In this document: in pieces, positions 495-35,096 of the stretch
How positions within the stretch are numbered: the first letter of the stretch is position 1
Layout of the letters: every line of letters starts with the position of its first letter
Assembly (NCBI RefSeq): GCF_001904745.1
Contig: NZ_MRCD01000091.1
Span: forward strand, 1 to 35,150
DNA from: Calothrix sp. HK-06
Lineage (GTDB): Bacteria; Cyanobacteriota; Cyanobacteriia; Cyanobacteriales; Nostocaceae
Length of the DNA stretch: 35,150 bases
Direction: 5' to 3'
Program-made: the position numbers and the translations under genes
Notes under the pieces: model-generated
What the model was told of the DNA's origin: nothing
Seen by the model: only the letters and a program-made list of their open reading frames with translations
Database searches by the model: none

Positions 495-1916
495 TTATAA
501 ATAAAAATTGTGTAATGTAGTATTCCCAGAATTACTCCTTTTTGCGGCTTCAAGAAGTTCTACGAGCTTTCCATGAGATTCGGCATGTTTAATTAAATCA
601 AATACAGTTTCAGCAGTATTATTACTTTCACTGGTTATTTCATCTAAATTCCACTCCAATTCCTCACTCAACATTATCTTTAATTTCATTTTACCGGGAA
701 AAGCAGACATTAAGGCTTCACGAAATTCTTTTCGCTGTAATGGATTCATATTAACAGAGCTAGAAATTTTTGATTCTTGTTCATTGTTCATTGCAGATTC
801 TGTATTAAACAAATAACCATCTTGTACGCGCATAAAAATAACAGGCGCCGCAAAATCACGTTTACGATATTGATTAGTACTCAAAGCTATGGCATATCGA
901 CCTTCTTGTACTGCTATATCTACAGGGACGCCTCGTGCTAGTCTTTTGTAGAAATTACAAGCGAAGCGAGAAGCTGTAGCGTTACTAACTTCGTATTGCA
1001 TAGCTACGACAACGGGAATATTTTGCTGTACCACCCTAGAAGCAACACCAACAAAAGCCTGTGATTCAGACAGCATAGCACCTTCACACGCTTGCAACAT
1101 CATCACTCCTGGGCGATGTCGGTTAAATAATTGACTAAAGTAACTTGCATCAACCCACATTGCCTCACCAAAGTCGTCTACAAATGCTATTTCTCCCACT
1201 TGCTGTTTATTTTCATTTTCAAAACGACCATGCCCAATAAAATGAAAAATATGTGGCTCAAGAGCTAAAATCTCATCAACCGCTTCGGGGTTAGCTTCGT
1301 TTACAACTGGTAAAAACTCAACTTGTGTAGCTTGTTCCAAAGCTAGTTTCTCTAAAGCTTGTTTGACTCGCTCATATTCCACGTGACCTAAATTACTAGG
1401 CGCCGACACAACCAAAGCAATCCTCAGCTTTTCGTTTTTACTCAACGCAATAGGTTGTGCTGGAGTCCATTGTACACGACGACGGGAAAAAACAATATCA
1501 GGGGTTGTGCCCAACCAAATTGTACCTAAATTAGCACTTTGGGGTAAGCACATAAATTCCCAAGGTAATGCCGCGACTTCAGGCATGTTTTGCTCATCAA
1601 TGTCTAATTCAATCCGCAGTAGCTGCTTTTTCTGTTGCACTATATCGTAGTAAAAGTTAACAAAGTCTTGGCGAAGTACTTCATCGAATAAGCAATTAAA
1701 TAAAGCTTCTCCGAGTAAGCGCGCTTTATCACTATCATTTAGTTCACTTTTACCAGTTAAATTGAGGAGTTGTTGAATTTCTAGAGTCAAACAGTCCTGA
1801 TAACGAAATTTCCCAGAGGGTTGACCAAGAGATTGACGCTGAGAATCCCACTTTTCAACCTGCACATGTTTATCATTGGCTACACGGATGCGGTAAGTGT
1901 AATAGACTTTGGACAT
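495..1916 (-). CDS. CHAT-domain caspase-like protease with C-terminal EAD1
   Basis: A 473-aa protein with two parts. Residues about 110-365 form a CHAT domain (caspase/HetF-associated). The probable catalytic His229 lies in HFIGHG and Cys277 in LQACEGA, each after a hydrophobic strand as in caspase-like peptidases. A linker leads to an EAD1 domain at about residues 390-473, which starts NPLQRKEFREALMSAFP and closely resembles the EAD1 encoded just downstream. CHAT proteases with EADs are known in multicellular cyanobacteria as predicted effectors of NTP-dependent conflict systems. No NTPase is seen here. The EAD1 stops slightly short (NTTLHNFYL). The gene starts 72 bp after the upstream gene's stop and is probably in one operon with it. 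No strong ribosome site precedes the ATG. Substrate unknown. Confidence 0.85.
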   Translation of the reverse strand: MSKVYYTYRIRVANDKHVQVEKWDSQRQSLGQPSGKFRYQDCLTLEIQQLLNLTGKSELNDSDKARLLGEALFNCLFDEVLRQDFVNFYYDIVQQKKQLLRIELDIDEQNMPEVAALPWEFMCLPQSANLGTIWLGTTPDIVFSRRRVQWTPAQPIALSKNEKLRIALVVSAPSNLGHVEYERVKQALEKLALEQATQVEFLPVVNEANPEAVDEILALEPHIFHFIGHGRFENENKQQVGEIAFVDDFGEAMWVDASYFSQLFNRHRPGVMMLQACEGAMLSESQAFVGVASRVVQQNIPVVVAMQYEVSNATASRFACNFYKRLARGVPVDIAVQEGRYAIALSTNQYRKRDFAAPVIFMRVQDGYLFNTESAMNNEQESKISSSVNMNPLQRKEFREALMSAFPGKMKLKIMLSEELEWNLDEITSESNNTAETVFDLIKHAESHGKLVELLEAAKRSNSGNTTLHNFYL

Positions 1917-1988
1917 GATGAAGCTTTTCTTGGTTAACCTTATTTTTCTACATAACGGCGCCTTAAGATTCAGTAAAAAATGTTTATT

Positions 1989-2888
1989 TTATTTTGGTAG
2001 ATTTAGAGTCCATTGTTTTTCGTCACCACGCGAAAGTTCTTTGGCTGCTTCGTCTTTACGTTTAAACAGGTTTTTTAACGTTTGTTTTAACTCGCTGGCA
2101 GCGTCGCGAATATCAGCAAACAACCAATCCATATTTGCTTCAGCCCATACTGTACCGTGTAAATTAATAGATGTACATTCTTTCGGCACTTTAAAGACAA
2201 CGGCAAATTTGACTGTTGCCATCTGCTGAATATCCGCTTCTTCGATACGCCAAAAACATTCGGAACTACCCGAACCTTGAGCAATTATTTTAAAAAACCC
2301 ACCTTCATAAGTGTAGTCAGGTACAGCAACAAATGCTTTTAGCTCATTTTTGGTACTTACACTAGCATTAAAATCAGGAATATTCGCCAGTTCTGCAAAT
2401 GTAGATGTATCAATTCCTACACTCCACTCTAAGTTTTCGTTCAAACCGAGGTTCATGCCAACCCCAAATTTCATTAAAGATTGCCACTTACTTTCTGGGA
2501 AAATAGTCTGAACAATTGGCTCTTTGTCTCCTTTGGGACTAAAATCAAGTAGGCAAGATAGGCGCCAAAATTTAACGTTTGGTTTAGGACGTAAATCTAC
2601 GGTGACAGTCATGTAATAAAAATCATAATTGTCACGCATTTGCTGTTTGTAAATACTGTTTAGCTCTACCCCAACTTCTTTAAAGGTTTCTTCTGTAAGT
2701 AGTATTAATTTATCATTCGGGTTGCCAAAGTTAACTTTGGTTTGCATTAAGCTTTGGACAGATGCGGTGCCTCTACCTAGTGTACCTCTTGAAGAGAGTG
2801 TGCCTTCCCACTTTTGGACTTCTTCAAATAGTTCGTTTAATAGAATGTCGGAGTTTTGAAGGTTAGGAGGCCTAGTTAAATCAACCAT
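1989..2888 (-). CDS. Uncharacterised 299-aa protein, first gene of the CHAT/EAD1 group
   Basis: I do not recognise a family. There is no signal peptide, no membrane segment and no obvious catalytic motif. Residues about 90-250 read as alternating short hydrophobic and polar stretches with several Trp residues, consistent with a beta-rich fold. The C-terminus (about 255-290) is helical and charged (ELKQTLKNLFKRKDEAAKEL). The ATG has a good AGAGG ribosome site 5 bases upstream. It is the promoter-proximal gene of a minus-strand group with the CHAT-EAD1 protease and the EAD1 gene, so it may be a sensor, substrate or partner of the protease. That role is inference from position only. Confidence 0.7.
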   Translation of the reverse strand: MVDLTRPPNLQNSDILLNELFEEVQKWEGTLSSRGTLGRGTASVQSLMQTKVNFGNPNDKLILLTEETFKEVGVELNSIYKQQMRDNYDFYYMTVTVDLRPKPNVKFWRLSCLLDFSPKGDKEPIVQTIFPESKWQSLMKFGVGMNLGLNENLEWSVGIDTSTFAELANIPDFNASVSTKNELKAFVAVPDYTYEGGFFKIIAQGSGSSECFWRIEEADIQQMATVKFAVVFKVPKECTSINLHGTVWAEANMDWLFADIRDAASELKQTLKNLFKRKDEAAKELSRGDEKQWTLNLPK

Positions 2889-3024
2889 TATTCCTCTAAG
2901 CTCATGAACTATAGACTATAGATAATATACAGTGTTGCTGACCCACTTGGCAGAACTGGCGCCTGAAGCAAAACTTGGGATCAAAGAAAAAAATAAATAT
3001 TTTATACAAATATTACTTCAGTAT

Positions 3025-3632: not shown

Positions 3633-3968
3633 AAAGTATCTAAAATTTTCTAGTGGTGGGCGCCCTTGCTAGCTCTAATATATATGCTTGGGTATATTGT
3701 TGGGTTTCGTTCCTCTACCCAACCAACATAATTAGATAACTCTGTGTTCTCTGTGGCTATGTGGTAAAAAAGATACATGGTATGGGCAGGCAGGGATGCC
3801 TGCTCCACAATATAGTTATTTAAAATCACCTATCCGTTACATCCGTTTTATCGGTTGCCACTTCGGTTTCTTCTACCTTGGGTTTGGCTTTGCGGGTTGT
3901 ACGGATTTGTTAGACTAATCACAACAGCAAGCAATCTTAACAAAACCACTCCTCTAGTAGAGCGACTT
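3633..3968. repeat. Repeat-rich intergenic region between xisI and tldD
   Basis: No gene is supported in this stretch. It holds at least four dispersed-repeat fragments. One is an inverted repeat TGTTGGG...ACCCAACCAACA at 3698-3728. The second, AACTCTGTGTTCTCTGTGG (about 3739-3757), matches the opposite strand near 24762-24780. The third is a GCAGGCAGGGATGCCTGC palindrome at about 3785-3802. The fourth, TATCCGTTACATCCGTT at 3831-3847, recurs exactly before eboE. A tldD promoter presumably also lies here. Confidence 0.6.
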
Positions 3969-5444
3969 ATGCTAATTACAGATAATTTACTAGTTTCTAA
4001 GCAACTCCCGACTCTTGAATATTCCTCGACGCAGGAAAGATTCGATGATACTTGGGAAGCTCCTTTGTCTACCCTTCTGGGTTTAGGACGTGCGGCAGGC
4101 GCCGATTTTTTGGAATTTTTTCTAGAGCGTGTTAATTATATAAGTTGTCTTGCTGAGGATGATACTATCACTAGCATTACTCCTCGCCTTTCTACTGGTG
4201 CAGGTGTACGTGTATTCTTGGGCAAAGCCGATTGCTATGTTACAACTAACGACCTTTCATTTAATGGTTTGAAAGCTGCGTTAGAAAAAGCTCTTGGAAT
4301 TATGGGTTTGCAGTTGCCTGCTCCTAATGCTTTTATTCCTGAAATTAATTTAGAACTTTTACGAGATTACGCTACTAAGCGCGGTAAAGATGGCTGGTTG
4401 CCCTTGTGTAGTGAAATACGCGAGATGGGTGAAGTTCTCCTTGATGGTACTGGACAACTTCAAAAAACTGCTAGCCATATTCAATCTCGTCGCGCGACTT
4501 ATTTCCGTGACTGGCAAGAAGTTTTAGTTGCTGCGAGTGATGGTACATTTGCTCGCGATATTCGCCTAACTCAGTCGGTAGGTTTCAATTTGTTGTGTGC
4601 TGATGGCGCCAACCGTACTTCTATTGCTGAACGTGCAGGTAATACAAGTGACCCTAATTTCTTGCGTACTTGGGATTATAAAGAAGCATCAGAACATATT
4701 TCTGAGTCGGCGGGTAAAATGCTGTACGCCGACTATGTAGAATCAGGTACTTATCCAATTATCATGGCAAACCACTTTGGTGGTGTAATTTTCCATGAAG
4801 CTTGTGGGCACTTACTCGAAACTACTCAAATTGAACGCAAAACAACCCCCTTCGCTGATAAAAAAGGTGAGAAAATTGCTCACGAAAGTTTAACAGCATG
4901 GGATGAAGGTCGTTCTGAGAATGCCTTCGGTACTATTGATATGGACGACGAAGGAATGCCAGCACAACGCACTTTGTTAATTGAAAAAGGCGTTTTGAAG
5001 AATTTCTTGGCTGATAGAGCGGGTTCAATGCGTACTGGACACCCCCGTACAGGTAGCGGAAGACGACAAAATTTCACGTTTGCGGCTGCTAGTAGAATGC
5101 GAAATACTTATATCGCAACTGGTGATTACACTCTTGATGATGTTTTTGCCTCTGTTGACAGAGGTATTTACTGTAAAAAAATGGGTGGTGGTAGCGTTGG
5201 CGCCACTGGACAATTCAATTTTGGTGTTGATGAAGCTTATTTAATTGAGAATGGCAAAATTACTAAGCCGCTTAAAGGCGCCATTTTGATTGGGGAAGCT
5301 AAGGAAATTATGAACAAGATTTCGATGTGTTCACAAGATTTATCTTTGGCGCCTGGTTTCTGTGGTTCTGTAAGTGGCAGTATTTATACTACTGTGGGTC
5401 AACCTCATATCAAGGTTGATTCGATTACTGTTGGTGGACGTTAA
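3969..5444 (+). CDS. tldD: TldD metallopeptidase subunit
   Basis: TldD of the TldD/TldE (PmbA) peptidase, which in other bacteria degrades unfolded peptides and trims modified peptides such as microcin B17 precursor. The zinc motif HEACGH (His276, Glu277, His281) is present, with family blocks GAGVRVF, the [15 protein letters not shown] region and a C-terminal APGFCG segment. From the ATG at 3969 the protein is 491 aa, the usual size. The frame is open upstream to 3855, but that stretch contains a dispersed repeat and encodes an unrelated sequence, so I reject the longer start. The partner tldE follows 64 bp downstream. Confident call. Confidence 0.93.
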
Positions 5445-5508: not shown

Positions 5509-6855
5509 ATGGCAAAAATTCAAGAAATCGCATCTGCGGCGAAGGATAGCGCAAACAAACTTGGAATTAAGAAGTTTGATATTTATGGTTCGAGTGTTGA
5601 TTCTACCAGTGTACAGGTAGATCAAGGTGAACCTAGACAAGTTAAGGCTTCTAATTTGTCGGGTGTGACTGTGCGGGTTTGGAATGAACAAAATACTGTT
5701 GGTGTCACTAGTACTACTGATGTTGACCCCAAAGGTTTAGAATTGGCTCTGAAAACAGCGTATGAAGCAAGCTTTTTTGGCGTAAAAGAAAATGTTCCTG
5801 ACTTTAGCCCAGAAGCAACAGCACCTCTAAATATAGATAATTCTTCCACAGAAAAAGTTGAACAGGCGCCTGTTAATGAGTTAATTCAAAGCTTGATATC
5901 AGCCGAAAAAGAGTTAATGGCGAAGCATCCTGCAATTAAGGGTGTACCGTACAATAATTTATCGCAGCGTGATGTCGATAGATTTTACCTTAATAGTGAT
6001 GGCGCCCTGAGAACTGAGTCACACTCGTTAGCTTCTGTGTATCTATATAGTAAGACAGAACAAGAAGGTAAAAAACCTCGTAGCGGTGGAGCGTTTAGAA
6101 TTAGTCATGGTATCAAAGATTTAGATGTCGATGGCTGTATTCAAGAAACTGCTGATAAAACCATTAGCCATCTCAATTACGAAAAAGTTCAAACTGGTAA
6201 ATACACTGTCGTATTTTCACCCGAAGCTTTTTTGAGTTTGCTTGGCGCCTTTTCTAACTTATACAACGCTCAAAGTATTCTCGATAAGCAAAGCCTTTCA
6301 ACTCCCGATGATATTGGCAAGCAAATAGCATCACCTTTACTTAGCGTATATGATGATGGATTGCACCCAGCGAATGTTGGCGCCGAATCTTTTGATGGTG
6401 AAGGAACTCCAACACGTAAAGTTTCTTTAATTGAAAATGGAGTTTTAAAAGGATTCCTTCATAGTGCAGGTACAGCAAAGCGACTCAATGCTCAACCTAC
6501 AGGAAATGCGAGTATTGGCGCCAAAGTTAGTGTTGGCCCCAATTTCTACCATGTGTACTCTGGGGCGCCTGCGGAGAAAGAATATAGCTTAGATACTGCT
6601 GAAAATGTCATTTTAATAGATGATTTGCAAGCACTTCATGCAGGTGTGAAGGCGCTTCAAGGTTCGTTTTCATTACCTTTTGACGGATGGATGGTCAATA
6701 AAGGGGTGAAGACGAGTATCGAATCAGCAACTGTTGCAGGTGATTTTCTGTCAGTTTTGAATTCGATTATATATATAGAGAAGGAACCTGAATTAACTCC
6801 TTCTGGTGTTTGCCCACGAGTTTGGGTTGAAGGACTTTCTATTACTGGAGAGTAA
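5509..6855 (+). CDS. tldE: TldE/PmbA-type metallopeptidase subunit
   Basis: A 448-aa protein of the TldD/PmbA superfamily, the non-metal-binding partner of TldD. Family features visible are the N-terminal DIYGSSVDSTSVQVDQGEPRQ segment, the GVTVRVW block, ASPLLSVYDDG with the following DGEGTPTRKVSLIENG, and the C-terminal WVEGLSITGE. It lacks an HExxxH motif, as expected for this subunit. It sits 64 bp after tldD with a small inverted repeat between them and probably shares its transcript. It is rich in GGCGCC sites (six), mostly read as Gly-Ala or Ala-Pro codon pairs. Confidence 0.92.
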   Translation: MAKIQEIASAAKDSANKLGIKKFDIYGSSVDSTSVQVDQGEPRQVKASNLSGVTVRVWNEQNTVGVTSTTDVDPKGLELALKTAYEASFFGVKENVPDFSPEATAPLNIDNSSTEKVEQAPVNELIQSLISAEKELMAKHPAIKGVPYNNLSQRDVDRFYLNSDGALRTESHSLASVYLYSKTEQEGKKPRSGGAFRISHGIKDLDVDGCIQETADKTISHLNYEKVQTGKYTVVFSPEAFLSLLGAFSNLYNAQSILDKQSLSTPDDIGKQIASPLLSVYDDGLHPANVGAESFDGEGTPTRKVSLIENGVLKGFLHSAGTAKRLNAQPTGNASIGAKVSVGPNFYHVYSGAPAEKEYSLDTAENVILIDDLQALHAGVKALQGSFSLPFDGWMVNKGVKTSIESATVAGDFLSVLNSIIYIEKEPELTPSGVCPRVWVEGLSITGE

Positions 6856-6895: not shown

Positions 6896-7357
6896 TTAAT
6901 ATTCTCCACCAATGCCGATGTTAACGTTGTAAATTTCGGTTCCTGTCCAGTTAACACCAATAACAGTGGCGCCATCGAGGTCATTGCTAACAAAATGCGC
7001 TGCTGTGAGGTTGGCGTTAGTTAAGTTGGCATTGTTCATACTAACGCTGTTGATAAATGCTGATGTGAGGTTGGCAGATTGAAGATTCGCACCTGTTAAA
7101 TCTGCTCCTTCTAAGTTGGCGTTCTTGAGGTTGGCGCCTTTTAAGTTAGCGTTTCGCAAATCTGCCCCTATCAAATGGGCGCCTTGAAGATTTGCACCAC
7201 TGAGGTTACATCCACTACACTCTCTGGTTTCAATTAATTTCCGGACGTTATTGCTGACGCTTGTATTTGTATTTGTAGTAGTTCCTTGCGCTCCAGCAGG
7301 AGATACAAAAGCAAAAGCACTCATTAGAGCAACTGCCGCAAAAAATTTAGTTTTCAT
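6896..7357 (-). CDS. Exported pentapeptide-repeat protein
   Basis: From the ATG at 7357 (153 aa) the protein starts MKTKFFAAVALMSAFAFVSPAGAQG, a clear signal peptide probably cut after AGA or AQG. Residues about 45-130 are A(N/D)LxG pentapeptide repeats (ANLQG, ADLRN, ANLKG, ANLEG, ADLTG and similar), which fold as a right-handed quadrilateral beta-helix. A Cys pair, CSGC, precedes the repeats. A start 9 codons upstream is possible, but GGAGG lies 7 bases before the chosen ATG and the signal peptide begins there. Such proteins are abundant in cyanobacteria and mostly of unknown role. Periplasmic or thylakoid-lumen location is inferred. Confidence 0.87.
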   Translation of the reverse strand: MKTKFFAAVALMSAFAFVSPAGAQGTTTNTNTSVSNNVRKLIETRECSGCNLSGANLQGAHLIGADLRNANLKGANLKNANLEGADLTGANLQSANLTSAFINSVSMNNANLTNANLTAAHFVSNDLDGATVIGVNWTGTEIYNVNIGIGGEY

Positions 7358-8582: not shown

Positions 8583-9413
8583 TCAACCTGTCAACATGTT
8601 TCTTAATCTACGCATTGACTGATGCTTCTTTCTCCAAGTTTGTGGGGGAATATCATGATGTTGACGGAATTGACGTGAGAAGTGACAGGCATTTTGATAG
8701 CCAAGAGAGGTAGAAATTTGCTCAATAGTTTGTTTGCTTTCTTGAAGTAATTCGCGTGCAGCAGACATTCGTCGTTTAACAATCCAGCCATTTACGGTAT
8801 CTCCCGTTTGTTTTGCAACTCGGTGTGTTAAGTATGCTGCTGAATAACCAACTGCACTAGCTACGTCGCATAATGTAATGCCTAAATGGAAATTAGCTTC
8901 GATATAATCGAATACTTCCTGAAGCTGAGTATTTTTGGGAAATATAGACTCTGGCTTTGAAGTTGCGTTTTTATCTAGCGAAACATTTTCTACTATTTGG
9001 TTGCATTCGCGGGTGTACCATTCTTTCAAATGCTTTTGTTTTCTTAACTGAGCTGTAATTGTTCGTGTCAACTCATCTAAGGTTGATGGCTTCGTAACAT
9101 AGTCATCTGCTCCCATTTCCATACCTTTGCGAATGTCTGTTTTGGCGCCACTTCCAGCTAAAAAGATGAATGGAATAATTGCGGTTACTGGGTCTTCTTG
9201 CAATATGCTTAAAACATCATAACCGCTGATATCTGGCATTACGACATCGCAAATAATAATATCGGGAAGATGCGTTTGCACTTTTTGGATGCCAGTTATA
9301 CCGTTTTCAGCGCCAATTGTGTTGAACCCTTCAGCAGATAACCCATCTAAATATAAATTACGAGTAGTTCTGTCGTCTTCGATGATTAGGACTGTTTTGG
9401 ATGGTGGTTTCAT
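8583..9413 (-). CDS. Response regulator, REC plus AraC-type DNA-binding domain
   Basis: A 276-aa regulator. The receiver domain (about 5-125) has acidic residues at IEDD (12-14), the phospho-acceptor Asp56 in IICDVVMP and Lys108 in YVTKPS. The switch Thr/Ser position before GSG is Ala86. Residues about 163-268 form an AraC/XylS two-HTH domain (DVASAVGYSAAYLTHRV, then ISTSLGYQNACHFSRQF). It lies 148 bp downstream of the histidine kinase and on its strand, so they form a two-component pair. In Nostoc punctiforme the response regulator in this position (Npun_F1278) has been reported as essential for scytonemin synthesis. Equivalent control of scyA here is inferred from synteny. Confidence 0.88.
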   Translation of the reverse strand: MKPPSKTVLIIEDDRTTRNLYLDGLSAEGFNTIGAENGITGIQKVQTHLPDIIICDVVMPDISGYDVLSILQEDPVTAIIPFIFLAGSGAKTDIRKGMEMGADDYVTKPSTLDELTRTITAQLRKQKHLKEWYTRECNQIVENVSLDKNATSKPESIFPKNTQLQEVFDYIEANFHLGITLCDVASAVGYSAAYLTHRVAKQTGDTVNGWIVKRRMSAARELLQESKQTIEQISTSLGYQNACHFSRQFRQHHDIPPQTWRKKHQSMRRLRNMLTG

Positions 9414-24790: not shown

Positions 24791-25618
24791 ATGAGACACG
24801 AGGTTTTTTCTACTTTAACAGCTCGCGTAGGCGCCTCCCATAATCTTCCTAAAGTTATCACCATAGTTGGTGGAAATGGTAGAATGGGTAAGTTCTTCAA
24901 TAACCAATTGACCGCAGCAGGGCATCGAGTAAATATAGTAGGAAGCAATTGGCAAGGCGCCGATAGTTTACTTCCTCAAGCTGATTTAGTATTAACTAGT
25001 GTTCCCATAGAATGTACTTGTGAAATAATTGAACGCACGGCTCAATATTTAACGCCCCATACAGCTTTAGCTGATATTACTAGCATTAAAATAGAACCTG
25101 TAAGAGCAATGCTAGAACATCATTCTGGTGCCGTTATGGGATTACATCCAATGTTCGGCCCCAGCGTTAAATCGTTTGCACAACAAAAGGTAGTGGTATG
25201 TTCCGGAAGAAATGATGAAGCTTTTGATTGGTTATTAGATTTAATGCGAAATCAGCAAGCGGAACTAATATTTTCTACACCAGAAGAACACGACCAAATG
25301 ATGGTGATGATTCAAGCGACACGACATTTTTGTCGTTTAACTCAAGCTGTATATTTGGCGCAAGAAAAAATTGATATAAACAAAAGTTTATCAATGTCAA
25401 GTCCTGTCTATCGTCAAGAAATAGATATTCTCAAACGTTTGCTCAATCAAAACCCGCAATTGTGTATTGATATCATGCTTGCTACCGAAGAACGGTGCCA
25501 AGCTATAAAATTACTTGCCGATACTTATAATCGTTTGGCACGACTGATAGAAACTAAAGACCGCGAAGGATTAGTCAAAGAAATTGAATTCACTCAAAAC
25601 TTTTTTAGCAAACAATAG
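24791..25618 (+). CDS. tyrA: TyrA, prephenate dehydrogenase
   Basis: A 275-aa NAD-dependent dehydrogenase that converts prephenate to 4-hydroxyphenylpyruvate. The Rossmann motif VGGNGRMGKFF is near residues 26-36, the catalytic His119 is in GLHPMFGP, and the C-terminal helical part has EEHDQMMVMIQATRHF, as in the dehydrogenase half of enterobacterial T-proteins. The chorismate mutase half is absent. 4-Hydroxyphenylpyruvate is the direct co-substrate of ScyA, so this copy probably serves scytonemin rather than tyrosine. It starts 68 bp after repeat copy D and ends 9 bp before the cyclase gene. Confidence 0.92.
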   Translation: MRHEVFSTLTARVGASHNLPKVITIVGGNGRMGKFFNNQLTAAGHRVNIVGSNWQGADSLLPQADLVLTSVPIECTCEIIERTAQYLTPHTALADITSIKIEPVRAMLEHHSGAVMGLHPMFGPSVKSFAQQKVVVCSGRNDEAFDWLLDLMRNQQAELIFSTPEEHDQMMVMIQATRHFCRLTQAVYLAQEKIDINKSLSMSSPVYRQEIDILKRLLNQNPQLCIDIMLATEERCQAIKLLADTYNRLARLIETKDREGLVKEIEFTQNFFSKQ

Positions 25619-26932: not shown

Positions 26933-28135
26933 ATGAAAATAAATAACAACCATCTCACCTATTGCACAAACATTCATCCAGGTGAACATTGGCATGAAGT
27001 ATTTGCAAATTTACAGCAGTACATACCCGAATTAAAAGCGCAACTTGGCTGGGATAAACCTTTTGGTATCGGTTTACGATTAGCGAATGTTGCAACGCAC
27101 GAGTTATTGGAATCCGACACTTTAGCAAATTTCCAAGCTTGGTTACAACAAAATGATTTATATGTATTTACCCTAAATGGCTTTCCTTACGGTGGTTTTC
27201 ACTTCTCGGTTGTGAAAGACAAAGTTTATGCGCCAGATTGGACGAAATCTGAAAGGCTCGAATATACATTAAGATTAGCAAGAATTTTGGCGCCGCTTTT
27301 GCCAGATGGAGTTGAAGGAAGCATTTCGACGCTACCGCTTTCGTATAAACCTTGGTTTAAGAATAATAAATCAGATTTATCATCGGTAACAGTGAGTGCA
27401 ACACATAATCTTGTGCAAGTTGTCGCGGAACTAGTTCGCATTAAGGAAGCAACTGGAAAAATATTGCATTTGGGGTTGGAGCCAGAGCCAGATGGATTAA
27501 TTGAAAACGCTGTAGAAGTTGTTCAGTATTTTAAAGAGTATTTGATACCTATTGGAAGTTCATACTTAGCAAAAGAATTGCAAATTTCCGAATCTGATGC
27601 AAAAACGCTTGTACTTGAGCATGTGCGGGTATGTTATGATACATGTCATTTTGCTGTTGAATACGAAAATCCTGTTTCTGTTGTAAAGCAGTTTGAGGAG
27701 GAAGGTATAAAAATAAGCAAAATTCAAATTAGTGCGGCATTACAGGTTAATTTACCAAAGGATGTTGAGCAAAGAAGTACGTTAAAACAGAAGTTACAAA
27801 CCTTTGCGGAGTCTACGTATCTACATCAGGCAATCGCACGAAAAGCTGATGGTATTAGGAGTCATTACTCCGATTTAGATGTAGCTTTGGTAGATTTTGA
27901 AGGCGCCGAGGAATGGCGGGTACACTTCCATGTGCCAATTTTCGTTCGTGATTATGAAGGTTTGCAATCGACTCAAGATGATATTATTGATGTTCTGGAT
28001 TTACTAAAAAAAGATAATTTTTGCACCCACCTAGAGATAGAGACTTACACATGGGAAGTTTTACCATCGAGTATGAAGTTAGATTTGTTAGCTTCGATTA
28101 AACGGGAATACGAATGGATATTAAGCTTTTTATAA
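26933..28135 (+). CDS. eboE: EboE, xylose-isomerase-like TIM-barrel protein
   Basis: A 400-aa protein from the ATG at 26933, starting MKINNNHLTYCTNIHPGEHW. The frame is open back to 26822 only because of the 9-bp repeat (LHPLHPLHP), and that extension has no family resemblance. Blocks such as LHLGLEPEPDG, VRVCYDTCHFAVEYENP and WRVHFHVPIFV, with ordered His, Glu and Asp residues, fit a metal-dependent TIM barrel of the AP-endonuclease-2/xylose isomerase type. EboE is known only as part of the ebo set required for scytonemin precursor export. Its reaction is unknown. No eboF follows; trpE is next. Confidence 0.88.
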   Translation: MKINNNHLTYCTNIHPGEHWHEVFANLQQYIPELKAQLGWDKPFGIGLRLANVATHELLESDTLANFQAWLQQNDLYVFTLNGFPYGGFHFSVVKDKVYAPDWTKSERLEYTLRLARILAPLLPDGVEGSISTLPLSYKPWFKNNKSDLSSVTVSATHNLVQVVAELVRIKEATGKILHLGLEPEPDGLIENAVEVVQYFKEYLIPIGSSYLAKELQISESDAKTLVLEHVRVCYDTCHFAVEYENPVSVVKQFEEEGIKISKIQISAALQVNLPKDVEQRSTLKQKLQTFAESTYLHQAIARKADGIRSHYSDLDVALVDFEGAEEWRVHFHVPIFVRDYEGLQSTQDDIIDVLDLLKKDNFCTHLEIETYTWEVLPSSMKLDLLASIKREYEWILSFL

Positions 28136-28473: not shown

Positions 28474-30672
28474 ATGACTGATACTTACTCCTATGTAACA
28501 GAAGGTGGTGTTCGCGTCTCACGCTGCATTACCGAGGTTAAAATGGATACTGCGCTAGACGATATACTATTTCGTTTAGATTCGCAGCGTGGCGGATTGC
28601 TTAATAGTAGTTATGAATACCCAGGTCGCTATCGACGATGGGCAATTGGCTTTGTAAACCCACCCTTGGAATTAGCGACACGAGAAAAAAGTTTTACGTT
28701 TACAGCGCTGAATGAGCGAGGTCAAGTTTTCATCCCGCTACTTTACGAACATTTATCAGCGCATGAGCAGTTGTGCGAAGTTGTTCAAAGTCATAACTGT
28801 ATTACTGGAAATATAAAGCCTGCTACTGAAACGTTTACAGAAGAAGAACGCAGTAAGCAACCCTCGGCATTTAGTGTGGTTCGTGAGATTTTACATGTCT
28901 TGGCTAGTGATGATGACGAGCATTTGGGGCTTTACGGTGCCTTTGGTTATGATTTAGTTTTTCAGTTTGAACCAATCGAGCAAACCTTGCAACGTCCAAG
29001 TGACCAGCGCGATTTGGTACTATATTTACCTGATGAGCTTGTAGTAGTTGATTATTACCAGCAGAAAGCGTACCGGGTAGAATATGAATTTGAAATCAAC
29101 GGGCGTAGTACAAACACTTTAGCGCGAGTAGGTGAGTCAATTAATTATCGCGGTAAAAATACTCAAGTTACATCAAAGGCAGACCACGCACCAGGAGAAT
29201 ATGCTTCTTTAGTAACAGTCGCGCTCGATTATTTTAAACGTGGCGATTTGTTTGAAGTTGTTCCAAGTCAAAGCTTCTTTGAGAGTTGTGATGAGTTGCC
29301 AAGCAAGTTATTTCAAACTTTAAGGCAAATTAATCCTAGTCCTTACGGGTTTCTATTTAACCTTGGTGGTGAATTTTTAATTGGCGCCTCTCCAGAAATG
29401 TTCGTGCGGGTTGAAGGTAGGCGCGTTGAAACTTGTCCTATCAGTGGTACTATTACACGCGGGCAAGATGCGATCGACGATGCCGACCAGATTCGTCAAC
29501 TGCTTAACTCATATAAAGATGAGTCAGAGTTAACGATGTGTACCGATGTTGACCGTAATGATAAATCGCGTATTTGTGAACCAGGTTCAGTACGAGTTAT
29601 TGGTCGGCGCCAAATTGAATTGTATAGTCATTTAATTCACACCGTAGACCATGTTGAAGGTATATTACGTCCAGAGTTTGACGCTTTAGACGCATTTTTA
29701 ACGCATACATGGGCTGTAACTGTAACAGGCGCCCCAAAACGCTGGGCAATGCAATTTATTGAACAGCACGAACGTAGCGCTAGACGTTGGTATGGTGGTG
29801 CTGTTGGTTGGTTAAGCTTTAACGGTAATTTTAATACCGGGTTAATTTTGCGAACAATTCGATTAAAAGATACTGTAGCAGAAGTTAGAGTTGGCGCCAC
29901 AGTACTCTACGACTCAATACCACAGGCAGAAGAACAGGAGACAATTACAAAAGCGGCAGCATTATTTGAAACGATTCGTCGCAGTAAGCACATAGAAGAG
30001 ATAGTAAAAATCAACTCTAGTTTTAACGTAATCGACACTATACCAGATGTTGAACCTGGAAAACACATTTTACTTATAGACCACGAAGACTCGTTCGTTC
30101 ATACCCTTGCTAACTATATTCGCTCTTGCGGTGCCACAGTTAAAACCTTAAGACACGGGTTTTCGGAATCAGTCTTTGATGATGAACGTCCTGATTTGGT
30201 GGTATTATCTCCTGGTCCTGGTAGACCAAAAGATTTCAAGGTTCCAGAAACAGTACATGCCTGTGTTAAACGTAATATTCCAATATTTGGTGTATGTTTA
30301 GGTTTGCAAGGTATAGTTGAAGCATTCGGTGGTGAGCTAAATATTCTTGACTACCCGCAACATGGTAAACCATCGCAACTAATAGTCAAAGATAGCAATA
30401 GCGTACTGTTTAAAGGTTTACCCGAAACTTTCCCCGTCGGTCGTTATCACTCGTTATACGCTAACGCAGAAAAATTACCATCCCAACTAAAGGTAACAGC
30501 AATAACTGAAGACGAAGTAATTATGGGAATTGAGCATCAATCATTACCCATAGCAGCAGTACAATTTCATCCTGAGTCAATAATGACTTTAACAGGAAAT
30601 ATTGGTTTAGCAATCATTAAAAATGTGGTTGCTAAATATACACAATACGACAAGCTCATACTTAACACATAA
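28474..30672 (+). CDS. trpE: Fused anthranilate synthase TrpE-TrpG
   Basis: A 732-aa fusion. The N-terminal chorismate-binding TrpE part (about 1-515) has PSPYGFLFNLG, GASPEMFVRV, CPISGTITRG and VTGAPKRWAMQFI. The C-terminal glutamine amidotransferase (about 530-725) has LIDHEDSFVHTLANY, nucleophile Cys608 in FGVCLGLQG and the dyad His699/Glu701 in QFHPES. It makes anthranilate from chorismate and glutamine. An SGGXLL-like Trp feedback site is not obvious: the segment near residue 40 reads GGLLNSS. I chose the ATG at 28474 over a TTG two codons upstream. Such fused copies accompany scytonemin loci and add to the housekeeping trp genes. Confidence 0.93.
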   Translation: MTDTYSYVTEGGVRVSRCITEVKMDTALDDILFRLDSQRGGLLNSSYEYPGRYRRWAIGFVNPPLELATREKSFTFTALNERGQVFIPLLYEHLSAHEQLCEVVQSHNCITGNIKPATETFTEEERSKQPSAFSVVREILHVLASDDDEHLGLYGAFGYDLVFQFEPIEQTLQRPSDQRDLVLYLPDELVVVDYYQQKAYRVEYEFEINGRSTNTLARVGESINYRGKNTQVTSKADHAPGEYASLVTVALDYFKRGDLFEVVPSQSFFESCDELPSKLFQTLRQINPSPYGFLFNLGGEFLIGASPEMFVRVEGRRVETCPISGTITRGQDAIDDADQIRQLLNSYKDESELTMCTDVDRNDKSRICEPGSVRVIGRRQIELYSHLIHTVDHVEGILRPEFDALDAFLTHTWAVTVTGAPKRWAMQFIEQHERSARRWYGGAVGWLSFNGNFNTGLILRTIRLKDTVAEVRVGATVLYDSIPQAEEQETITKAAALFETIRRSKHIEEIVKINSSFNVIDTIPDVEPGKHILLIDHEDSFVHTLANYIRSCGATVKTLRHGFSESVFDDERPDLVVLSPGPGRPKDFKVPETVHACVKRNIPIFGVCLGLQGIVEAFGGELNILDYPQHGKPSQLIVKDSNSVLFKGLPETFPVGRYHSLYANAEKLPSQLKVTAITEDEVIMGIEHQSLPIAAVQFHPESIMTLTGNIGLAIIKNVVAKYTQYDKLILNT

Positions 30673-30725: not shown

Positions 30726-31568
30726 ATGCCAAAATCACAATCAGTCACTCGTCATATTCTTGAAGAAATTGTGCTGCATAAGACAAAAGAAGTCGCACAA
30801 ATGGAAGAAGAACTGCCATTAACTTCTTTACAGCAGCAATTAAATCAATCTTTACCAGCACAGAATTTTTTGCAAGCACTACAGCAAAGTCCTTATTACC
30901 CAAGTTTAATTGCTGAAGTAAAAAAAGCTTCTCCAAGTAAGGGAGTAATTAGAGAAGACTTTGATGCAGTTGAGATAGCGCGCGCTTATGAAGATAATGG
31001 CGCCGCTTGCATATCGGTGTTAACTGATAAGAAGTTTTTTCAAGGTAGTTTTGATAATCTTCGCAAAATTCGTTCAGCGGTCAAACTACCTTTACTATGT
31101 AAAGAATTTATTATCAAACCTTATCAAATATACCTGGCACGAAATAATGGCGCCGATGCTGTATTGCTAATTGCGGCAATACTAAGTGATTCTCAACTTC
31201 AGTCATTTCTAGAAACAATTCATAATTTAGGAATGACAGCTTTAGTAGAGGTTCACACTTTAGAGGAACTCGATCGAGTATTGAAACTTGATGGTGTGTC
31301 TTTAGTCGGTATTAACAACCGTAATCTCGAAAATTTTAGTCTAGACATTCATGTTACTGAACAATTATTAACGCAGCGACAGCAACAAATTCAAGATTTA
31401 AATATAACTATTGTCAGTGAGTCTGGGATATATACATCTGAAGATTTAAGCTTCGTTAAAAAGGCAGGCGCCCGTGCCGTCTTAGTCGGAGAATCACTAG
31501 TCAAACAACCTGATATCAAACAAGCAGTACGTCATCTCTTAGGTAACACATCAAATGATAATATCTAA
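30726..31568 (+). CDS. trpC: Indole-3-glycerol phosphate synthase
   Basis: A 280-aa TIM-barrel enzyme that closes the indole ring in Trp synthesis. Family motifs are [44 protein letters not shown] with the catalytic Lys, LVEVHT, GINNRNL and SESGI. It is monofunctional, without a trpF half. Its 3' end overlaps trpA by 14 bases, so translation is probably coupled. Confidence 0.96.
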
Positions 31569-32370
31569 TCGCTTTCAAGCTTTACGAAATCGCAATCAAT
31601 GTGCGCTGATTCCCTTCATTACAGCATCAGACCCTGATATAGCCACCACCGCAAAAGCACTTCGGATTTTAGACAGTAATGGTGCTGACTTTATTGAATT
31701 AGGTGTTCCCTACTCTGACCCATTAGCAGATGGTCCGGTTATTCAAGCGGCGGCAACTCGCGCACTTTTACAAGGAACAAAATTAGAACATGTGCTAGAA
31801 ATGCTAGCAGAAGTAGCTCCTGATTTGCAGGCGCCAATCATTTTGTTCACATATTACAACCCCATTCTCAACCTTGGGACTGAGACATTTTTACAAGAAA
31901 TAGCTAAAGTAGGAGTTAAAGGATTAGTCGTTCCCGATTTACCTCTTGAAGAATCTTCACCCTTAATTCAAGCTGCAACAGAATTTGGAATTGAAGTGAT
32001 TTTACTTGTGGCGCCGACAAGCTCAAAAGATAGAATTGAAGCAATTGCTCATTCCTCACAAGGGTTCATATATCTAGTTAGCTTGACAGGCGTAACAGGT
32101 ATGCGAAATCAAATCCAAGAGCGAGTCAAAGATTTAATTGTAGAAATGCGAGATATTACAGACAAACCAATTGGTGTAGGTTTTGGAATATCAAGCCCAG
32201 AACAAGCTAAACAAGTACGTGAATGGGGAGCAGATGCAGTAATTGTAGGCAGTGCTTTTGTTCAACGTCTTGCTGCTGAAAATCCTGAAGATGGTCTTCA
32301 AGCAGTTAAACAACTGTGTCAAGAACTAAAAGAAGCTGTTTCTCCATCACTACAAACTGCTTCAAGATAG
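31555..32370 (+). CDS. trpA: Tryptophan synthase alpha subunit
   Basis: A 271-aa TIM barrel. The catalytic Glu48 and Asp59 lie in [19 protein letters not shown]. Further family blocks are [28 protein letters not shown] and GFGISSPEQ. It cleaves indole-glycerol phosphate and passes indole to TrpB. It overlaps the end of trpC. trpB is 165 bp further on with a strong hairpin between. Confidence 0.96.
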
Positions 32371-32535: not shown

Positions 32536-33771
32536 GTGGTTAGCATTGCCAATATTACAACTTCTGATTCAGACACAACACAACGTCCTGGTAAAAATGG
32601 TAGGTTTGGTCGATTTGGTGGTAAATATGTACCAGAGACTTTAATGCCTGCACTTGCAGAGCTAGAAACAGCATATTACAACTATTGTAACCAAGCTGAC
32701 TTTCAAGAAGAACTGCAAGGTTTACTTCGTGATTATGTAGGCAGACCTAGCCCATTGTATTTTGCTGAACGTCTGACAGAATACTATGCTCGTCCAGACG
32801 GTAGTGGTGCCCAAATTTACTTAAAGCGCGAAGATTTAAATCATACAGGCGCCCATAAAATCAATAATGCTTTAGCACAGGTTTTGTTAGCAAAACGCAT
32901 GGGCAAAAAGCGGATTATTGCAGAAACTGGAGCGGGACAGCATGGAGTCGCAACTGCGACTGTGTGCGCGCGTTTCGGTCTTGAGTGCATCATTTATATG
33001 GGTGTTCAAGATATGGAGCGTCAAGCATTAAACGTGTTTAGAATGCGTTTGATGGGCGCCGAAGTTCGTCCAGTCGAAGCAGGTACAGGCACTCTAAAAG
33101 ATGCAACATCAGAAGCAATTCGCGACTGGGTTACAAACGTTGAAACCACTCATTACATATTAGGTTCAGTTGCAGGTCCTCATCCTTACCCGATGATAGT
33201 ACGTGACTTTCATGTAGTAATTGGTAAAGAAACTCGCGTTCAATGTCAGGAAAAATGGGGTGGACTGCCTGATATCTTACTTGCTTGTGTAGGAGGTGGT
33301 TCCAATGCAATTGGCTTATTTAGCGAATTTGTTGATGAACCAAGAGTGCGTATTATCGGTGTTGAAGCAGCAGGTGAAGGAGTTAATACCGATAAACATG
33401 CTGCAACCTTAACATATGGACGTGTAGGAGTTTTGCACGGTGCAATGAGTTATTTGTTGCAAGACGATGACGGTCAGGTAATCGAAGCACATTCAATTAG
33501 CGCTGGTTTAGATTATCCAGGTGTTGGACCTGAACACAGCTATTTAAAAGATATTGGACGTGCAGAATATTACAGTGTCACCGACAAAGAAGCACTGGCT
33601 GCATTCCAACGTTTAGCAAAACTTGAAGGCATAATTCCAGCCTTAGAAACAGCACACGCAATTGCTTACTTAGACAAACTTTGTCCGCAAATTGAAGACA
33701 ATGCGCGCATCGTTATCAACTGCTCTGGTAGAGGTGATAAAGATGTCCAAACTGTTGCAAAAGTCATATAG
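32536..33771 (+). CDS. trpB: Tryptophan synthase beta subunit
   Basis: A 411-aa PLP enzyme condensing indole with serine. It has [16 protein letters not shown], the PLP lysine Lys108 in [19 protein letters not shown], the phosphate loop GGGSNAIG and the C-terminal CSGRGDKD. The start is a GTG with TGAGGAGG about 10 bases before it. The length is normal for TrpB1. The gene ends 12 bp before the 77-bp tandem array. Confidence 0.96.
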
Positions 33772-33783
33772 ACCAAAAAGCCT

Positions 33784-34014
33784 GTAAGGGCGGGTTAACG
33801 AAATATCTAGAACATTTTTAGTATATCTGTAAACCCGCCCCAACAAAAACCCAAAACCCCGTAAGGGCGGGTTAACGAAATATCTAGAACATTTTTAGTA
33901 TATCTGTAAACCCGCCCCAACAAAAACCCAAAACCCCGTAAGGGCGGGTTAACGAAATATCTAGAACATTTTTAGTATATCTGTAAACCCGCCCCAACAA
34001 AAACCCAAAACCCA
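33784..34014. repeat. Three tandem copies of a 77-bp hairpin repeat
   Basis: Units start at 33784, 33861 and 33938, near-identical at 77-bp spacing. Each has GGGCGGGTT and AACCCGCCC as a 9-bp perfect stem around a 35-base AT-rich loop, then a CAACAAAAACCCAAAACCC tail. The array ends in further CCCAAAA runs just before the DAHP synthase ATG. It is a long-repeat or STRR-type element between trpB and aroG. It is not CRISPR: the units are contiguous with no unique spacers. Confidence 0.9.
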
Positions 34015-34028
34015 AAACCTAAAATCTT

Positions 34029-35096
34029 ATGTTAGTAGTTCTTAAACCTGGTACTCCAGCAGTTGAAATTGAGCATATCGTTGAAGAAGTTAACCAATCT
34101 TTGAACGTTACAATCGAGAAAAGTATTGGTAAGCATAAAGTTGTGCTAGGACTTATTGGTGATACTGCCACTGTTGACCCATTCCACATCCAAAAAATAA
34201 GCCCTTGGATTGAACAAGTATTGCATATCGAGAAAGCATTCAAGCGTGCGAGTCGTGAATACCGTTACGGTGAAGCGAGTGAAATTGTTGTTCCCACTCC
34301 TAACGGTGATGTTTACTTTGGCGAAAATCATCCCGTTGTCATAGTAGCAGGGCCTTGTTCAGTTGAAAACGAACAAATGATTGTTGAAACTGCACAACGA
34401 GTCAAAGCTGCGGGAGCTAAGTTTTTACGAGGAGGCGCCTTTAAGCCTCGTACTTCACCATATGCATTCCAAGGACACGGCGAAAGCGCACTTCAATTAT
34501 TAGATGCAGCACGTAAAGCGACTGGTTTAGGCATCATTACTGAAGTTATGGATACTGCTGACTTAGCAGCTATTGGTAGTGTTGCGGACATTATCCAAGT
34601 TGGCGCCCGCAACATGCAAAACTTCTCGCTGCTTAAAAAAGTCGGCGCACAAAATAAGCCTGTGTTGTTAAAACGCGGTTTATCTGCCACCATCGATGAA
34701 TGGTTAATGTCAGCAGAATATATTCTTGCAGCAGGAAACCCAAATGTAATTTTCTGTGAGCGCGGCATTAGAACATGCGATGATAAATACACCCGCAACG
34801 TCTTAGATTTATCAGCAATTCCAGTACTGCGTCAGCTAACACACTTACCAATTATGGTTGATCCGAGTCATGCAACTGGTAAATCAGAATACGTGGCACC
34901 AATGGCAAAAGCAGCTATTGCAGCAGGCGCCGACTCATTAATGATTGAAGTGCATCCAAACCCAGCTAAAGCATTATCTGATGGTCCTCAATCTTTAACT
35001 CCCGACAGTTTCGACAAGCTGGTTAAAGAAATTTCAGTTTTTGGTAAAGCTGTTGAGCGTTGGGAAGAAACATCGTTAATACCAGCATTGGTGTAA
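34029..35096 (+). CDS. aroG: 3-Deoxy-7-phosphoheptulonate synthase (type I-beta)
   Basis: A 355-aa enzyme catalysing the first step of the shikimate pathway from phosphoenolpyruvate and erythrose 4-phosphate. An N-terminal ferredoxin-like regulatory domain (about 1-85, VVLKPGTPAVEIEHIVEEV) precedes the TIM barrel. The barrel has VIVAGPCSVE, GAKFLRGGAFKPRTSPYAF, VGARNMQNF, KRGL, CERGIRT and VDPSHATGK. The I-beta layout with the N-terminal domain is typical of copies regulated by aromatic amino acids; a different set-point for this secondary-metabolism copy is possible but not readable. The 77-bp array abuts it upstream. It may be named aroF or aroG. Confidence 0.94.
   Translation: MLVVLKPGTPAVEIEHIVEEVNQSLNVTIEKSIGKHKVVLGLIGDTATVDPFHIQKISPWIEQVLHIEKAFKRASREYRYGEASEIVVPTPNGDVYFGENHPVVIVAGPCSVENEQMIVETAQRVKAAGAKFLRGGAFKPRTSPYAFQGHGESALQLLDAARKATGLGIITEVMDTADLAAIGSVADIIQVGARNMQNFSLLKKVGAQNKPVLLKRGLSATIDEWLMSAEYILAAGNPNVIFCERGIRTCDDKYTRNVLDLSAIPVLRQLTHLPIMVDPSHATGKSEYVAPMAKAAIAAGADSLMIEVHPNPAKALSDGPQSLTPDSFDKLVKEISVFGKAVERWEETSLIPALV

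What the first reader, a model, noticed from the sequence alone, without database searches (positions are those of the whole stretch)
844..34931. GGCGCC is a highly iterated palindrome here, while GCGATCGC (HIP1) seems absent
By eye I count about 65 GGCGCC sites in 35 kb, one per roughly 540 bp. At about 40% GC, chance predicts around two. Sites are in most genes and also in intergenic DNA (for example 1957, 2958, 3659, 12573). In genes they are mostly read as Gly-Ala or Ala-Pro, using GGC/GCC codons in genes that otherwise prefer GGT, GCT and GCA. I found no GCGATCGC, the iterated palindrome known from many cyanobacteria. This looks like a replacement HIP-like motif, perhaps kept by a methyltransferase, repair or chromosome-structure function.
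Basis: partly seen in the sequence, partly recalled or inferred. Interest (0 to 1): 0.8.

Follow-up and report, generated by a model that had tools for sequence, protein, structure and literature searches.

The report
Genus-wide replacement for cyanobacterial HIP1
In one genus of filamentous cyanobacteria the short DNA word GGCGCC has taken the place of HIP1, the word that most cyanobacteria repeat thousands of times; it is probably marked by a DNA-methylating enzyme that has lost its cutting partner, and its six letters are kept better than the DNA around them.

Summary
In detail: 65 GGCGCC in 35,150 bp (3.1 expected), no GCGATCGC; 15,449 GGCGCC in the 10-Mb genome. It is not new in kind: Elhai (2015, PMC4390886) named GGCGCC the alternative HIP of Calothrix PCC 7103, a congener (G005). 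New here: (1) it marks the whole genus, 7 of 7 genomes at 1,150-1,711 per Mb, against at most 1,053 copies in each of 210 other family genomes, contrary to "sporadically, not in clades". (2) All 7 have a HindV-type m5C methyltransferase but no HindVP nuclease, and lack an m5C methyltransferase found in 87 of 93 relatives. (3) Decay runs mainly to GGTGCC/GGCACC, pointing to the inner C as the methylated base (weaker in the codon-matched test). (4) Sites arose by substitution; synonymous change inside the motif is suppressed, and the effect ends at its edge. Use drops within about 75 bp of another site but not at kilobase range, against the published repair-ratchet set point. I favour selection for a methylated mark. 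Methylation and function were not observed.

The parts
844..849 (.). GGCGCC site 1 of 65
1399..1404 (.). GGCGCC site 2
1957..1962 (.). GGCGCC site 3 (intergenic)
2561..2566 (.). GGCGCC site 4
2958..2963 (.). GGCGCC site 5 (intergenic)
3659..3664 (.). GGCGCC site 6 (intergenic)
4098..4103 (.). GGCGCC site 7
4605..4610 (.). GGCGCC site 8
5199..5204 (.). GGCGCC site 9
5277..5282 (.). GGCGCC site 10
5348..5353 (.). GGCGCC site 11
5865..5870 (.). GGCGCC site 12
6001..6006 (.). GGCGCC site 13
6244..6249 (.). GGCGCC site 14
6379..6384 (.). GGCGCC site 15
6517..6522 (.). GGCGCC site 16
6564..6569 (.). GGCGCC site 17
6968..6973 (.). GGCGCC site 18
7133..7138 (.). GGCGCC site 19
7178..7183 (.). GGCGCC site 20
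9144..9149 (.). GGCGCC site 21
12573..12578 (.). GGCGCC site 22 (intergenic)
12929..12934 (.). GGCGCC site 23
13472..13477 (.). GGCGCC site 24
14231..14236 (.). GGCGCC site 25
14285..14290 (.). GGCGCC site 26
14398..14403 (.). GGCGCC site 27
15115..15120 (.). GGCGCC site 28
16063..16068 (.). GGCGCC site 29
16380..16385 (.). GGCGCC site 30
16465..16470 (.). GGCGCC site 31
16868..16873 (.). GGCGCC site 32
17342..17347 (.). GGCGCC site 33
17719..17724 (.). GGCGCC site 34
17778..17783 (.). GGCGCC site 35
18602..18607 (.). GGCGCC site 36
19972..19977 (.). GGCGCC site 37
20517..20522 (.). GGCGCC site 38
20786..20791 (.). GGCGCC site 39
21325..21330 (.). GGCGCC site 40
22110..22115 (.). GGCGCC site 41
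22652..22657 (.). GGCGCC site 42
23694..23699 (.). GGCGCC site 43
24215..24220 (.). GGCGCC site 44
24442..24447 (.). GGCGCC site 45
24830..24835 (.). GGCGCC site 46
24956..24961 (.). GGCGCC site 47
26021..26026 (.). GGCGCC site 48
26345..26350 (.). GGCGCC site 49
27289..27294 (.). GGCGCC site 50
27902..27907 (.). GGCGCC site 51
29383..29388 (.). GGCGCC site 52
29606..29611 (.). GGCGCC site 53
29728..29733 (.). GGCGCC site 54
29893..29898 (.). GGCGCC site 55
30999..31004 (.). GGCGCC site 56
31149..31154 (.). GGCGCC site 57
31467..31472 (.). GGCGCC site 58
31830..31835 (.). GGCGCC site 59
32010..32015 (.). GGCGCC site 60
32848..32853 (.). GGCGCC site 61
33055..33060 (.). GGCGCC site 62
34434..34439 (.). 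GGCGCC site 63
34602..34607 (.). GGCGCC site 64
34926..34931 (.). GGCGCC site 65 of 65
   Evidence: the methyltransferase gene itself lies on other contigs

Best explanation
GGCGCC is the alternate highly iterated palindrome (HIP) of a whole Calothrix-type genus (members include Dulcicalothrix desertica PCC 7102 and Calothrix PCC 7103). SHOWN: it stands in place of HIP1 in all 7 held genomes of the genus; its sites arose by point substitution; the genus has a HindV-type m5C methyltransferase (MTase) without its HindVP nuclease and lacks an m5C MTase that most relatives have. INFERRED: that orphan MTase methylates the inner cytosine (GG-m5C-GCC), which leaks by deamination to GGTGCC/GGCACC. INFERRED: a force acting on these six bases, most likely selection for a methylated mark that the cell's DNA maintenance machinery (strand discrimination, recombination or nucleoid folding) elsewhere reads at HIP1 and here reads at GGCGCC, removes decayed copies and keeps about 1.2-1.7 sites per kb. 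The useful part of a HIP would then be the methylated GC-rich palindrome, not its particular letters.
For: Genus restriction: 7 of 7 genomes have 7,475-20,380 GGCGCC (1,150-1,711 per Mb); 210 other family genomes 0-1,053. HIP1 31-163 per genome in the genus, 535-7,734 in 53 other genera of the family. MTase: A1 family in 7 of 7 congeners, PCQ and ENV motifs invariant; outside the genus 20 of 93 have it at E<=1e-60, and 18 of these 20 also match RE_HindVP PF09519 (11 full-length without stops, 7 broken or partial); in the genus PF09519 is 0 of 7. Relatives with the MTase have fewer GGCGCC (median 0.86 vs 7.69 per Mb, 20 vs 73 genomes, p=0.00055), as expected if it belongs to a restriction system covering GGCGCC. 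In a 53-row tree the genus's subfamily-1 MTases form one clade (100/99) among mostly nuclease-linked ones. The other m5C MTase: 0 of 7 in the genus, 87 of 93 outside. Inner C: in polarised alignments inner CpG transitions 37/41/39 against 17/20/27 expected from context, all other changes 9/9/7 against about 31/29/36; among one-off words only GGTGCC/GGCACC exceeds a first-order expectation, 150 vs 91. Conservation: synonymous GCC>GCN 2 of 110 inside the motif vs 40 of 140 outside (p=1.3e-9; gene bootstrap of the difference -0.36 to -0.19); hexamer kept in G003: genic 251 of 331 vs 3,052 of 7,690 other GC-rich hexamers, intergenic 25 of 39 vs 460 of 1,049; flanks at background identity. Restoration, small numbers: GGT|GCC to GGC|GCC 3/5, 2/4, 2/2, 2/2 vs 1.5, 1.2, 1.5 and 6% before other G-codons. 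327 of 659 Gly-Ala pairs are GGC GCC, 8.8 expected.
Against: No methylation data were available. The codon-matched test of the inner C is weak: GGC>GGT inside the motif 31/251, 31/217, 26/248 vs 5/91, 5/86, 7/88 outside (p=0.07, 0.05, 0.68), and in the deep comparison reversed, 18/126 vs 8/26 (p=0.08). Under a second-order model two other one-offs are not depleted (GCCGCC 1.15, GTCGCC 0.95), and the standing excess of GGTGCC is clear in G000 and G005 only. Raw parsimony counts more losses than gains (77/89/74 vs 8/8/8); slow decay is not excluded, and G000 and G005 carry most T forms (68-69 vs 30-46). Against G001, position by position, own sites are at or below background at positions 1, 3, 4 and 6 (0.77-0.81 vs 0.80 in flanks), since many sites are younger than that split or decayed. 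An orphan HindV-type MTase is not sufficient: G027 has one, with 277 GGCGCC in 6.5 Mb, and four named relatives in its MTase clade show 0-1 GGCGCC per locus. GACGTC, also a GRCGYC site, is nearly absent (3 vs 40 expected), though scarce in G024 and G028 too. The tie of the other m5C MTase to HIP1 is not absolute (G097 lacks it at E<=1e-80 with 8,259 HIP1). Motif-specific biased repair would leave much the same footprint as selection. The three close comparisons share G000 and G003.
Confidence: 0.55

Rival explanations
1. By-product of biased mismatch repair (Elhai's model): a methylated GmC steers repair so that changes creating GG-m5C-GCC are kept, filling the genome up to about one site per kb with no function of the sequence itself.
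For: Proposed for PCC 7103. GGTGCC/GGCACC return to GGCGCC above background (5/16, 4/18, 4/13 vs 0.3-0.4 expected). GRCGYC forms other than GGCGCC are depleted. The model required methylation at the inner C, to which the spectrum points.
Against: The model saturates at about 1,000 nt, but use of GGCGCC at Gly-Ala pairs is flat from 100 to 1,000 bp (0.52-0.61) and falls only below about 75-100 bp. Conservation ends at the motif edge, whereas repair steered by a nearby mark should cover a region. The second MTase copy that the paper thought may have been critical is missing in G001 and G004, which have 1,150 and 1,701 sites per Mb with one A1 match each. The exceptional HIP is a clade character, contrary to the paper's sporadic picture.
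Confidence: 0.28
2. A DNA-binding protein of the genus needs GGCGCC, and methylation is incidental.
For: Conservation is sharp at the six bases and sites closer than about 50 bp are scarce (gaps under 30 bp: 7 of 667 vs 32 expected in G000), as an occupied footprint would give. The codon-matched inner-C test is weak.
Against: The inner-C transition excess points to methylation, and the absence of one m5C MTase and of a nuclease partner across the genus is then coincidence. No invariant flanking base in the window's 65 sites.
Confidence: 0.11
3. DNA uptake word, mobile repeat, codon or G+C bias, or assembly artefact.
For: High copy number resembles uptake words.
Against: All three codon phases (327/112/160 vs 8.9/9.9/9.4 under a synonymous null) and intergenic DNA (O/E 18.6) are enriched; outgroup positions hold other hexamers rather than gaps (3 gaps of 64 in G028); same result in 7 genomes. 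The reversed word CCGCGG occurs 6 times in the genome, but it is itself avoided, so that control flatters.
Confidence: 0.04

Closest known systems
Alternate HIP GGCGCC of Calothrix PCC 7103 and D253 (Elhai 2015, Life 5:921, PMC4390886; parts 1-6 of 8 of the text read)
   Same: Same word, HIP1 nearly absent, GATC depleted, GRCGYC-type MTase; PCC 7103 is G005 of this genus (contig C7 length 8,793,494 equals NZ_KB217478.1).
   Different: One genome of 97 there; here 7 of 7 of the genus, with nuclease absence, MTase tree, inner-C signature, conservation tests, short-range exclusion, and a test against the kilobase set point.
HIP1 (GCGATCGC) of most cyanobacteria
   Same: GC-rich perfect palindrome, about one per kb, tied to an m5C MTase (Elhai 2015); reported as conserved in and between genes (Xu, Lawrence and Durand 2018, recalled, not read).
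   Different: Other sequence, and a candidate MTase whose relatives are linked to a restriction nuclease, rather than the widespread MTase that the genus lacks.
HindV/HindVP (GRCGYC) type II restriction-modification
   Same: MTase about 55% identical to plasmid MTases, one of them annotated hindVM; in relatives the HindVP nuclease lies next to it.
   Different: In the genus the nuclease is not found, and GGCGCC is enriched instead of avoided.

Membership tests
Alternate HIP (Elhai 2015) | GC-rich palindrome, strongly over-represented, about 1 per kb | tested here: met
   Window: most over-represented 6-mer, 65 vs 3.06; genome 1.55 per kb.
Alternate HIP (Elhai 2015) | HIP1 low or nearly absent in the same genome | tested here: met
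   88 GCGATCGC in 10 Mb, 31-163 in the genus.
Alternate HIP (Elhai 2015) | Genome encodes a MTase able to methylate the word | tested here: inconclusive
   HindV-type m5C MTase by homology and by nuclease neighbourhood in relatives; activity and specificity not shown.
Alternate HIP (Elhai 2015) | Occurs sporadically, not in clades (the paper's description, not a definition) | tested here: not met
   7 of 7 genomes of the genus, 0 of 210 others in the family at comparable density.
HindV-type restriction-modification system | Cognate HindVP nuclease | tested here: not met
   PF09519 0 of 7 in the genus, 18 of 93 outside.
HindV-type restriction-modification system | MTase specificity GRCGYC | tested here: inconclusive
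   Family link and C>T at position 3 (weak); no biochemistry. GRCGYC as the HindV site is recalled; Elhai lists GrCGyC MTases for PCC 7103.
GmC-dependent repair ratchet (Elhai 2015) | Gain saturates within about 1 kb | tested here: not met
   Use flat from 100 to 1,000 bp.
Very short patch repair | Vsr endonuclease | tested here: not met
   PF03852 0 of 60.

The most novel reading that the evidence does not exclude
HIP function is portable: cyanobacteria need a widely available m5C mark in a GC-rich palindrome, and whichever orphan m5C MTase supplies it decides the letters. A former restriction MTase took over the job in this genus, and thousands of sites per genome were rewritten by point substitution and are now under selection, with a local redundancy length of only some 50-75 bp.
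Probability: 0.32. Interest if true: 0.82.

Novelty: new member of a known kind. Interest (0 to 1): 0.52.

Why it matters
Whether HIPs are selected or are debris of repair is an old open question. A genus where the word, the MTase set and HIP1 differ together is an independent replicate. Its substitution spectrum points to the methylated base, its spacing speaks against a simple kilobase set point, and two natural controls (G027: orphan MTase with HIP1 kept; G028: HIP1 and GATC depleted, no match to this MTase at E<=1e-60) show no comparable GGCGCC gain.

Tried and rejected
Very short patch repair as driver: Vsr 0 of 60 genomes, and GGTGCC is not depleted. The 370-aa m5C MTase present in 7 of 7 congeners (L028 group) as the driver: it is 69-70% identical to G009's and similar hits occur in HIP1-rich relatives, so it is not specific to the genus. 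The second-copy idea: G001 and G004 have a single match to A1. Even spacing at kb scale: gaps are near exponential, CV 0.99. Plain codon bias: the synonymous null gives 28 coding sites, 599 seen. Proteome drive: Gly-Ala excess is small (O/E 1.01-1.15 in the genus vs 0.81-1.02 in G028, G024 and six named loci). The short-range exclusion was not controlled for Gly-Ala-rich repeats. The PF01555 MTases were listed but not resolved by specificity, so an N4 or N6 enzyme on GGCGCC is not excluded. DNA binding, methylation calling and mutation accumulation could not be run.

Full report
Observation. The window holds 65 GGCGCC, 3.1 expected, largest of 100 shuffles 8, and no GCGATCGC, 0.2 expected. GGCGCC is the most over-represented 6-mer of the window, 65 vs 3.06. 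The genome (G000, 9,990,453 bp, 243 contigs; the window is contig C235) has 15,449 GGCGCC and 6 of the reversed control CCGCGG, and 88 GCGATCGC. CCGCGG is itself avoided here (0 vs 30 expected in 435 kb), so it is a flattering control; the shuffles and Markov models are the fair ones.

What is known. A full-text search for GGCGCC with HIP1 and cyanobacteri gave one paper: Elhai 2015, PMC4390886, of which I read parts 1-6 of 8. It reports GGCGCC as the alternate HIP of Calothrix PCC 7103, one genome of 97, and of the fragments of strain D253, with two GRCGYC MTases, a truncated CGATCG MTase and GATC at 16% of expectation. It proposes a GmC-dependent repair ratchet with a set point near one site per 1,000 nt, and says that exceptional HIPs occur sporadically, not in clades. 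A search for GGCGCC with overrepresented, methyltransferase and bacteria gave three papers, the other two by their titles on halobacteria and on GcrA/CcrM (listing only). (HIP and Dulcicalothrix terms) were seen as listings. The library holds open-licence papers only. PMC4752239 was searched for terms: GGCGCC 0. Xu, Lawrence and Durand 2018 is recalled, not read.

Distribution. Of 100 genomes, the 7 of the own genus have 7,475-20,380 sites, the 53 other same-family genera 0-530, other families of the order at most 2,493. Over the 217 family genomes held, only the 7 of the genus exceed 1,053. HIP1 is the mirror image within the family; in other families it can be low too (G066 134, G077 206).

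Enzymes. The genus has 9-17 matches to PF00145 per genome. Among the ORFs of the 70 loci taken, two m5C groups occur in 7 of 7 genomes: a 370-aa group and subfamily 1 of a group of about 320 aa. The second (alignment A1) is of HindV type: outside the genus 20 of 93 genomes have it at E<=1e-60; 18 of the 20 also match RE_HindVP, 11 of them full-length without stops, 7 broken or partial; the exceptions are G027 and G050. The genus has the nuclease 0 of 7. In the genus subfamily 1 lies beside a RuBisCO-like gene and a GHL10-type gene or part of it in 6 of 7 (read from the ORFs; Pfam run on the G004 locus only). In G000 an intact copy lies elsewhere (C60), and pieces of another lie at the ends of C29 and C207. 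A1 match counts are 3, 1, 3, 3, 1, 2, 2 for G000-G006, fragments included. A tree of 53 rows puts the subfamily-1 MTases in one clade, with mostly nuclease-linked relatives around it; a second nuclease-free clade (Tolypothrix, Hassallia, Spirirestis, Plectonema, G027) is separate. A different m5C MTase of 425-467 aa, in 8 of 8 family genomes examined, has only 35% identical matches among the genus MTases at hand; searched in 100 genomes at E<=1e-80 it is in 87 of 93 outside and 0 of 7 inside. That this is the CGATCG enzyme DmtC is my inference from Elhai's account, not tested. The six outside genomes without it are G026, G037, G066, G089, G090 and G097, with 134 (G066) to 8,259 (G097) HIP1.

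Natural controls. G027 keeps HIP1 (6,611) and the widespread MTase and has the orphan HindV-type MTase: 277 GGCGCC. G028 has few HIP1 (535) and GATC 14 vs 402 expected, but no A1 match: 326 GGCGCC in 10.7 Mb. The genus has both changes and 1.2-1.7 sites per kb. One or a few genomes per cell: a lead, not proof.

Inner cytosine. In 435,150 bp of own DNA with GGCGCC masked, one-off words are depleted under a first-order model (O/E 0.19-0.70) except GGTGCC/GGCACC, 150 vs 91; under a second-order model GCCGCC (1.15) and GTCGCC (0.95) are not depleted, and GGTGCC is 2.08. Against their own unmasked expectations the other genomes show 91/81 (G006), 78/76 (G002), 126/75 (G005), 63/70 (G003) and 89/70 (G001), so the standing excess is clear in G000 and G005 only. 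In polarised alignments the inner CpG transitions exceed the context rate (37/41/39 vs 17/20/27), while all other changes are about a quarter of expectation (9/9/7 vs about 31/29/36). The codon-matched version is weaker: GGC>GGT inside the motif 31/251, 31/217, 26/248 vs 5/91, 5/86, 7/88 outside (p=0.07, 0.05, 0.68), and 18/126 vs 8/26 in the deep comparison, reversed (p=0.08). Fast loss with later restoration or removal would give both results, but so far this is a reading.

Origin and conservation. Own sites aligned to relatives are kept in 412/486 (G006), 373/438 (G002), 331/439 (G005), 276/381 (G003) and 153/328 (G001), and in 0/64 and 0/69 in two other genera, with 3 gaps of 64 in G028. 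At Ala GCC codons the wobble base changed in 2 of 110 cases inside the motif and 40 of 140 outside (G000, G003, outgroup G001; p=1.3e-9); in the close comparisons 4/224 vs 18/288 (p=0.015), 6/192 vs 18/272 (p=0.13) and 3/225 vs 19/281 (p=0.003). Against G003 the six positions stand at 0.89-0.94 with flanks at 0.85-0.86, against G002 0.94-0.99 with flanks 0.94; against G001 positions 2 and 5 stand at 0.88-0.90, the others at 0.77-0.81, with flanks at 0.80. Intergenic sites are kept above other GC-rich intergenic hexamers in all five comparisons, with small numbers: 36/45, 31/44, 34/44, 25/39, 6/19; against all other intergenic hexamers the G005 and G001 differences vanish. Raw parsimony gives 77/89/74 losses to 8/8/8 gains. 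Among the 25 commonest six-genome patterns, T forms are mostly in one strain only, and the stem of the close clade shows 19 gain-type and 5 loss-type cases. Recent losses that do not accumulate fit purifying selection or rapid restoration; slow decay is not excluded.

Spacing. At Gly-Ala pairs GGCGCC is used in 0.025 of cases within 15 bp of another site, 0.30 at 15-50, 0.38 at 50-75, 0.49 at 75-100, 0.52-0.61 at 100-1,000 bp, and 28 of 61 beyond (six homologous genomes pooled; singly). Gap counts agree: under 30 bp 7 vs 32 expected in G000, 8 vs 20 in G003, 2 vs 12 in G001. Saturation at about 1 kb, as in the ratchet model, is not seen. Gly-Ala-rich repeats were not controlled for.

Plasmids. 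A 50-kb stretch of the PCC 7716 plasmid has 64 GGCGCC and 0 HIP1; a metal-efflux stretch of NIES-4105 plasmid 1 has 31 GGCGCC and 9 HIP1, as if imported HIP1 DNA were part-way converted.

Verdict. A real, genus-wide alternate HIP, known in kind since 2015 from one member of the same genus. I favour a methylated mark held by selection on the motif, set by an orphan HindV-type MTase, over the repair ratchet, by about two to one.

Noticed in passing
window 12656-35096: Scytonemin-type gene cluster: TPP enzyme (scyA-like), ELFV dehydrogenase (scyB-like), NHL proteins, TatD, UbiA (Pfam), followed by genes that read as tyrA, aroB, trpE/G, trpC, trpA, trpB and aroG (names recalled from the translations, not searched).
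   Followed up: partly
window 7184-12572: Only one GGCGCC in 5.4 kb, over a response regulator with an AraC-type domain (8583-9413) and a PAS histidine kinase (9562-11454): a sparse patch inside the cluster, perhaps imported.
   Followed up: no
own genome, 435 kb sample: Several palindromes are missing: TGCGCA 0 of 112 expected, TTCGAA 0 of 138, CCGCGG 0 of 30, GATC at 12% of expectation; CGCGCG 4.5-fold over.
   Followed up: partly
G067, G095 (another family of the order): 2,493 and 1,031 GGCGCC with CCGCGG at 38 and 21: a possible second, milder case; base composition not checked.
   Followed up: no
L136-L139, G027: A separate nuclease-free clade of HindV-type MTases in Tolypothrix, Hassallia, Spirirestis and Plectonema, with HIP1 kept and GGCGCC not enriched.
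   Followed up: partly
G028: GATC 14 vs 402 expected in 160 kb and HIP1 reduced, although the widespread m5C MTase is present.
   Followed up: no
L334 (AP018291.1:100001-150000): Metal-efflux stretch of a NIES-4105 plasmid with 9 HIP1 and 31 GGCGCC, GATC 48 vs 115 expected: looks like half-converted imported DNA.
   Followed up: partly
L132:5204-8495: A 658-aa m5C MTase whose C-terminal part has no Pfam match (run on the G000 copy), followed by a 435-aa unknown protein, about 3 kb from the HindV-type MTase in PCC 7103.
   Followed up: no
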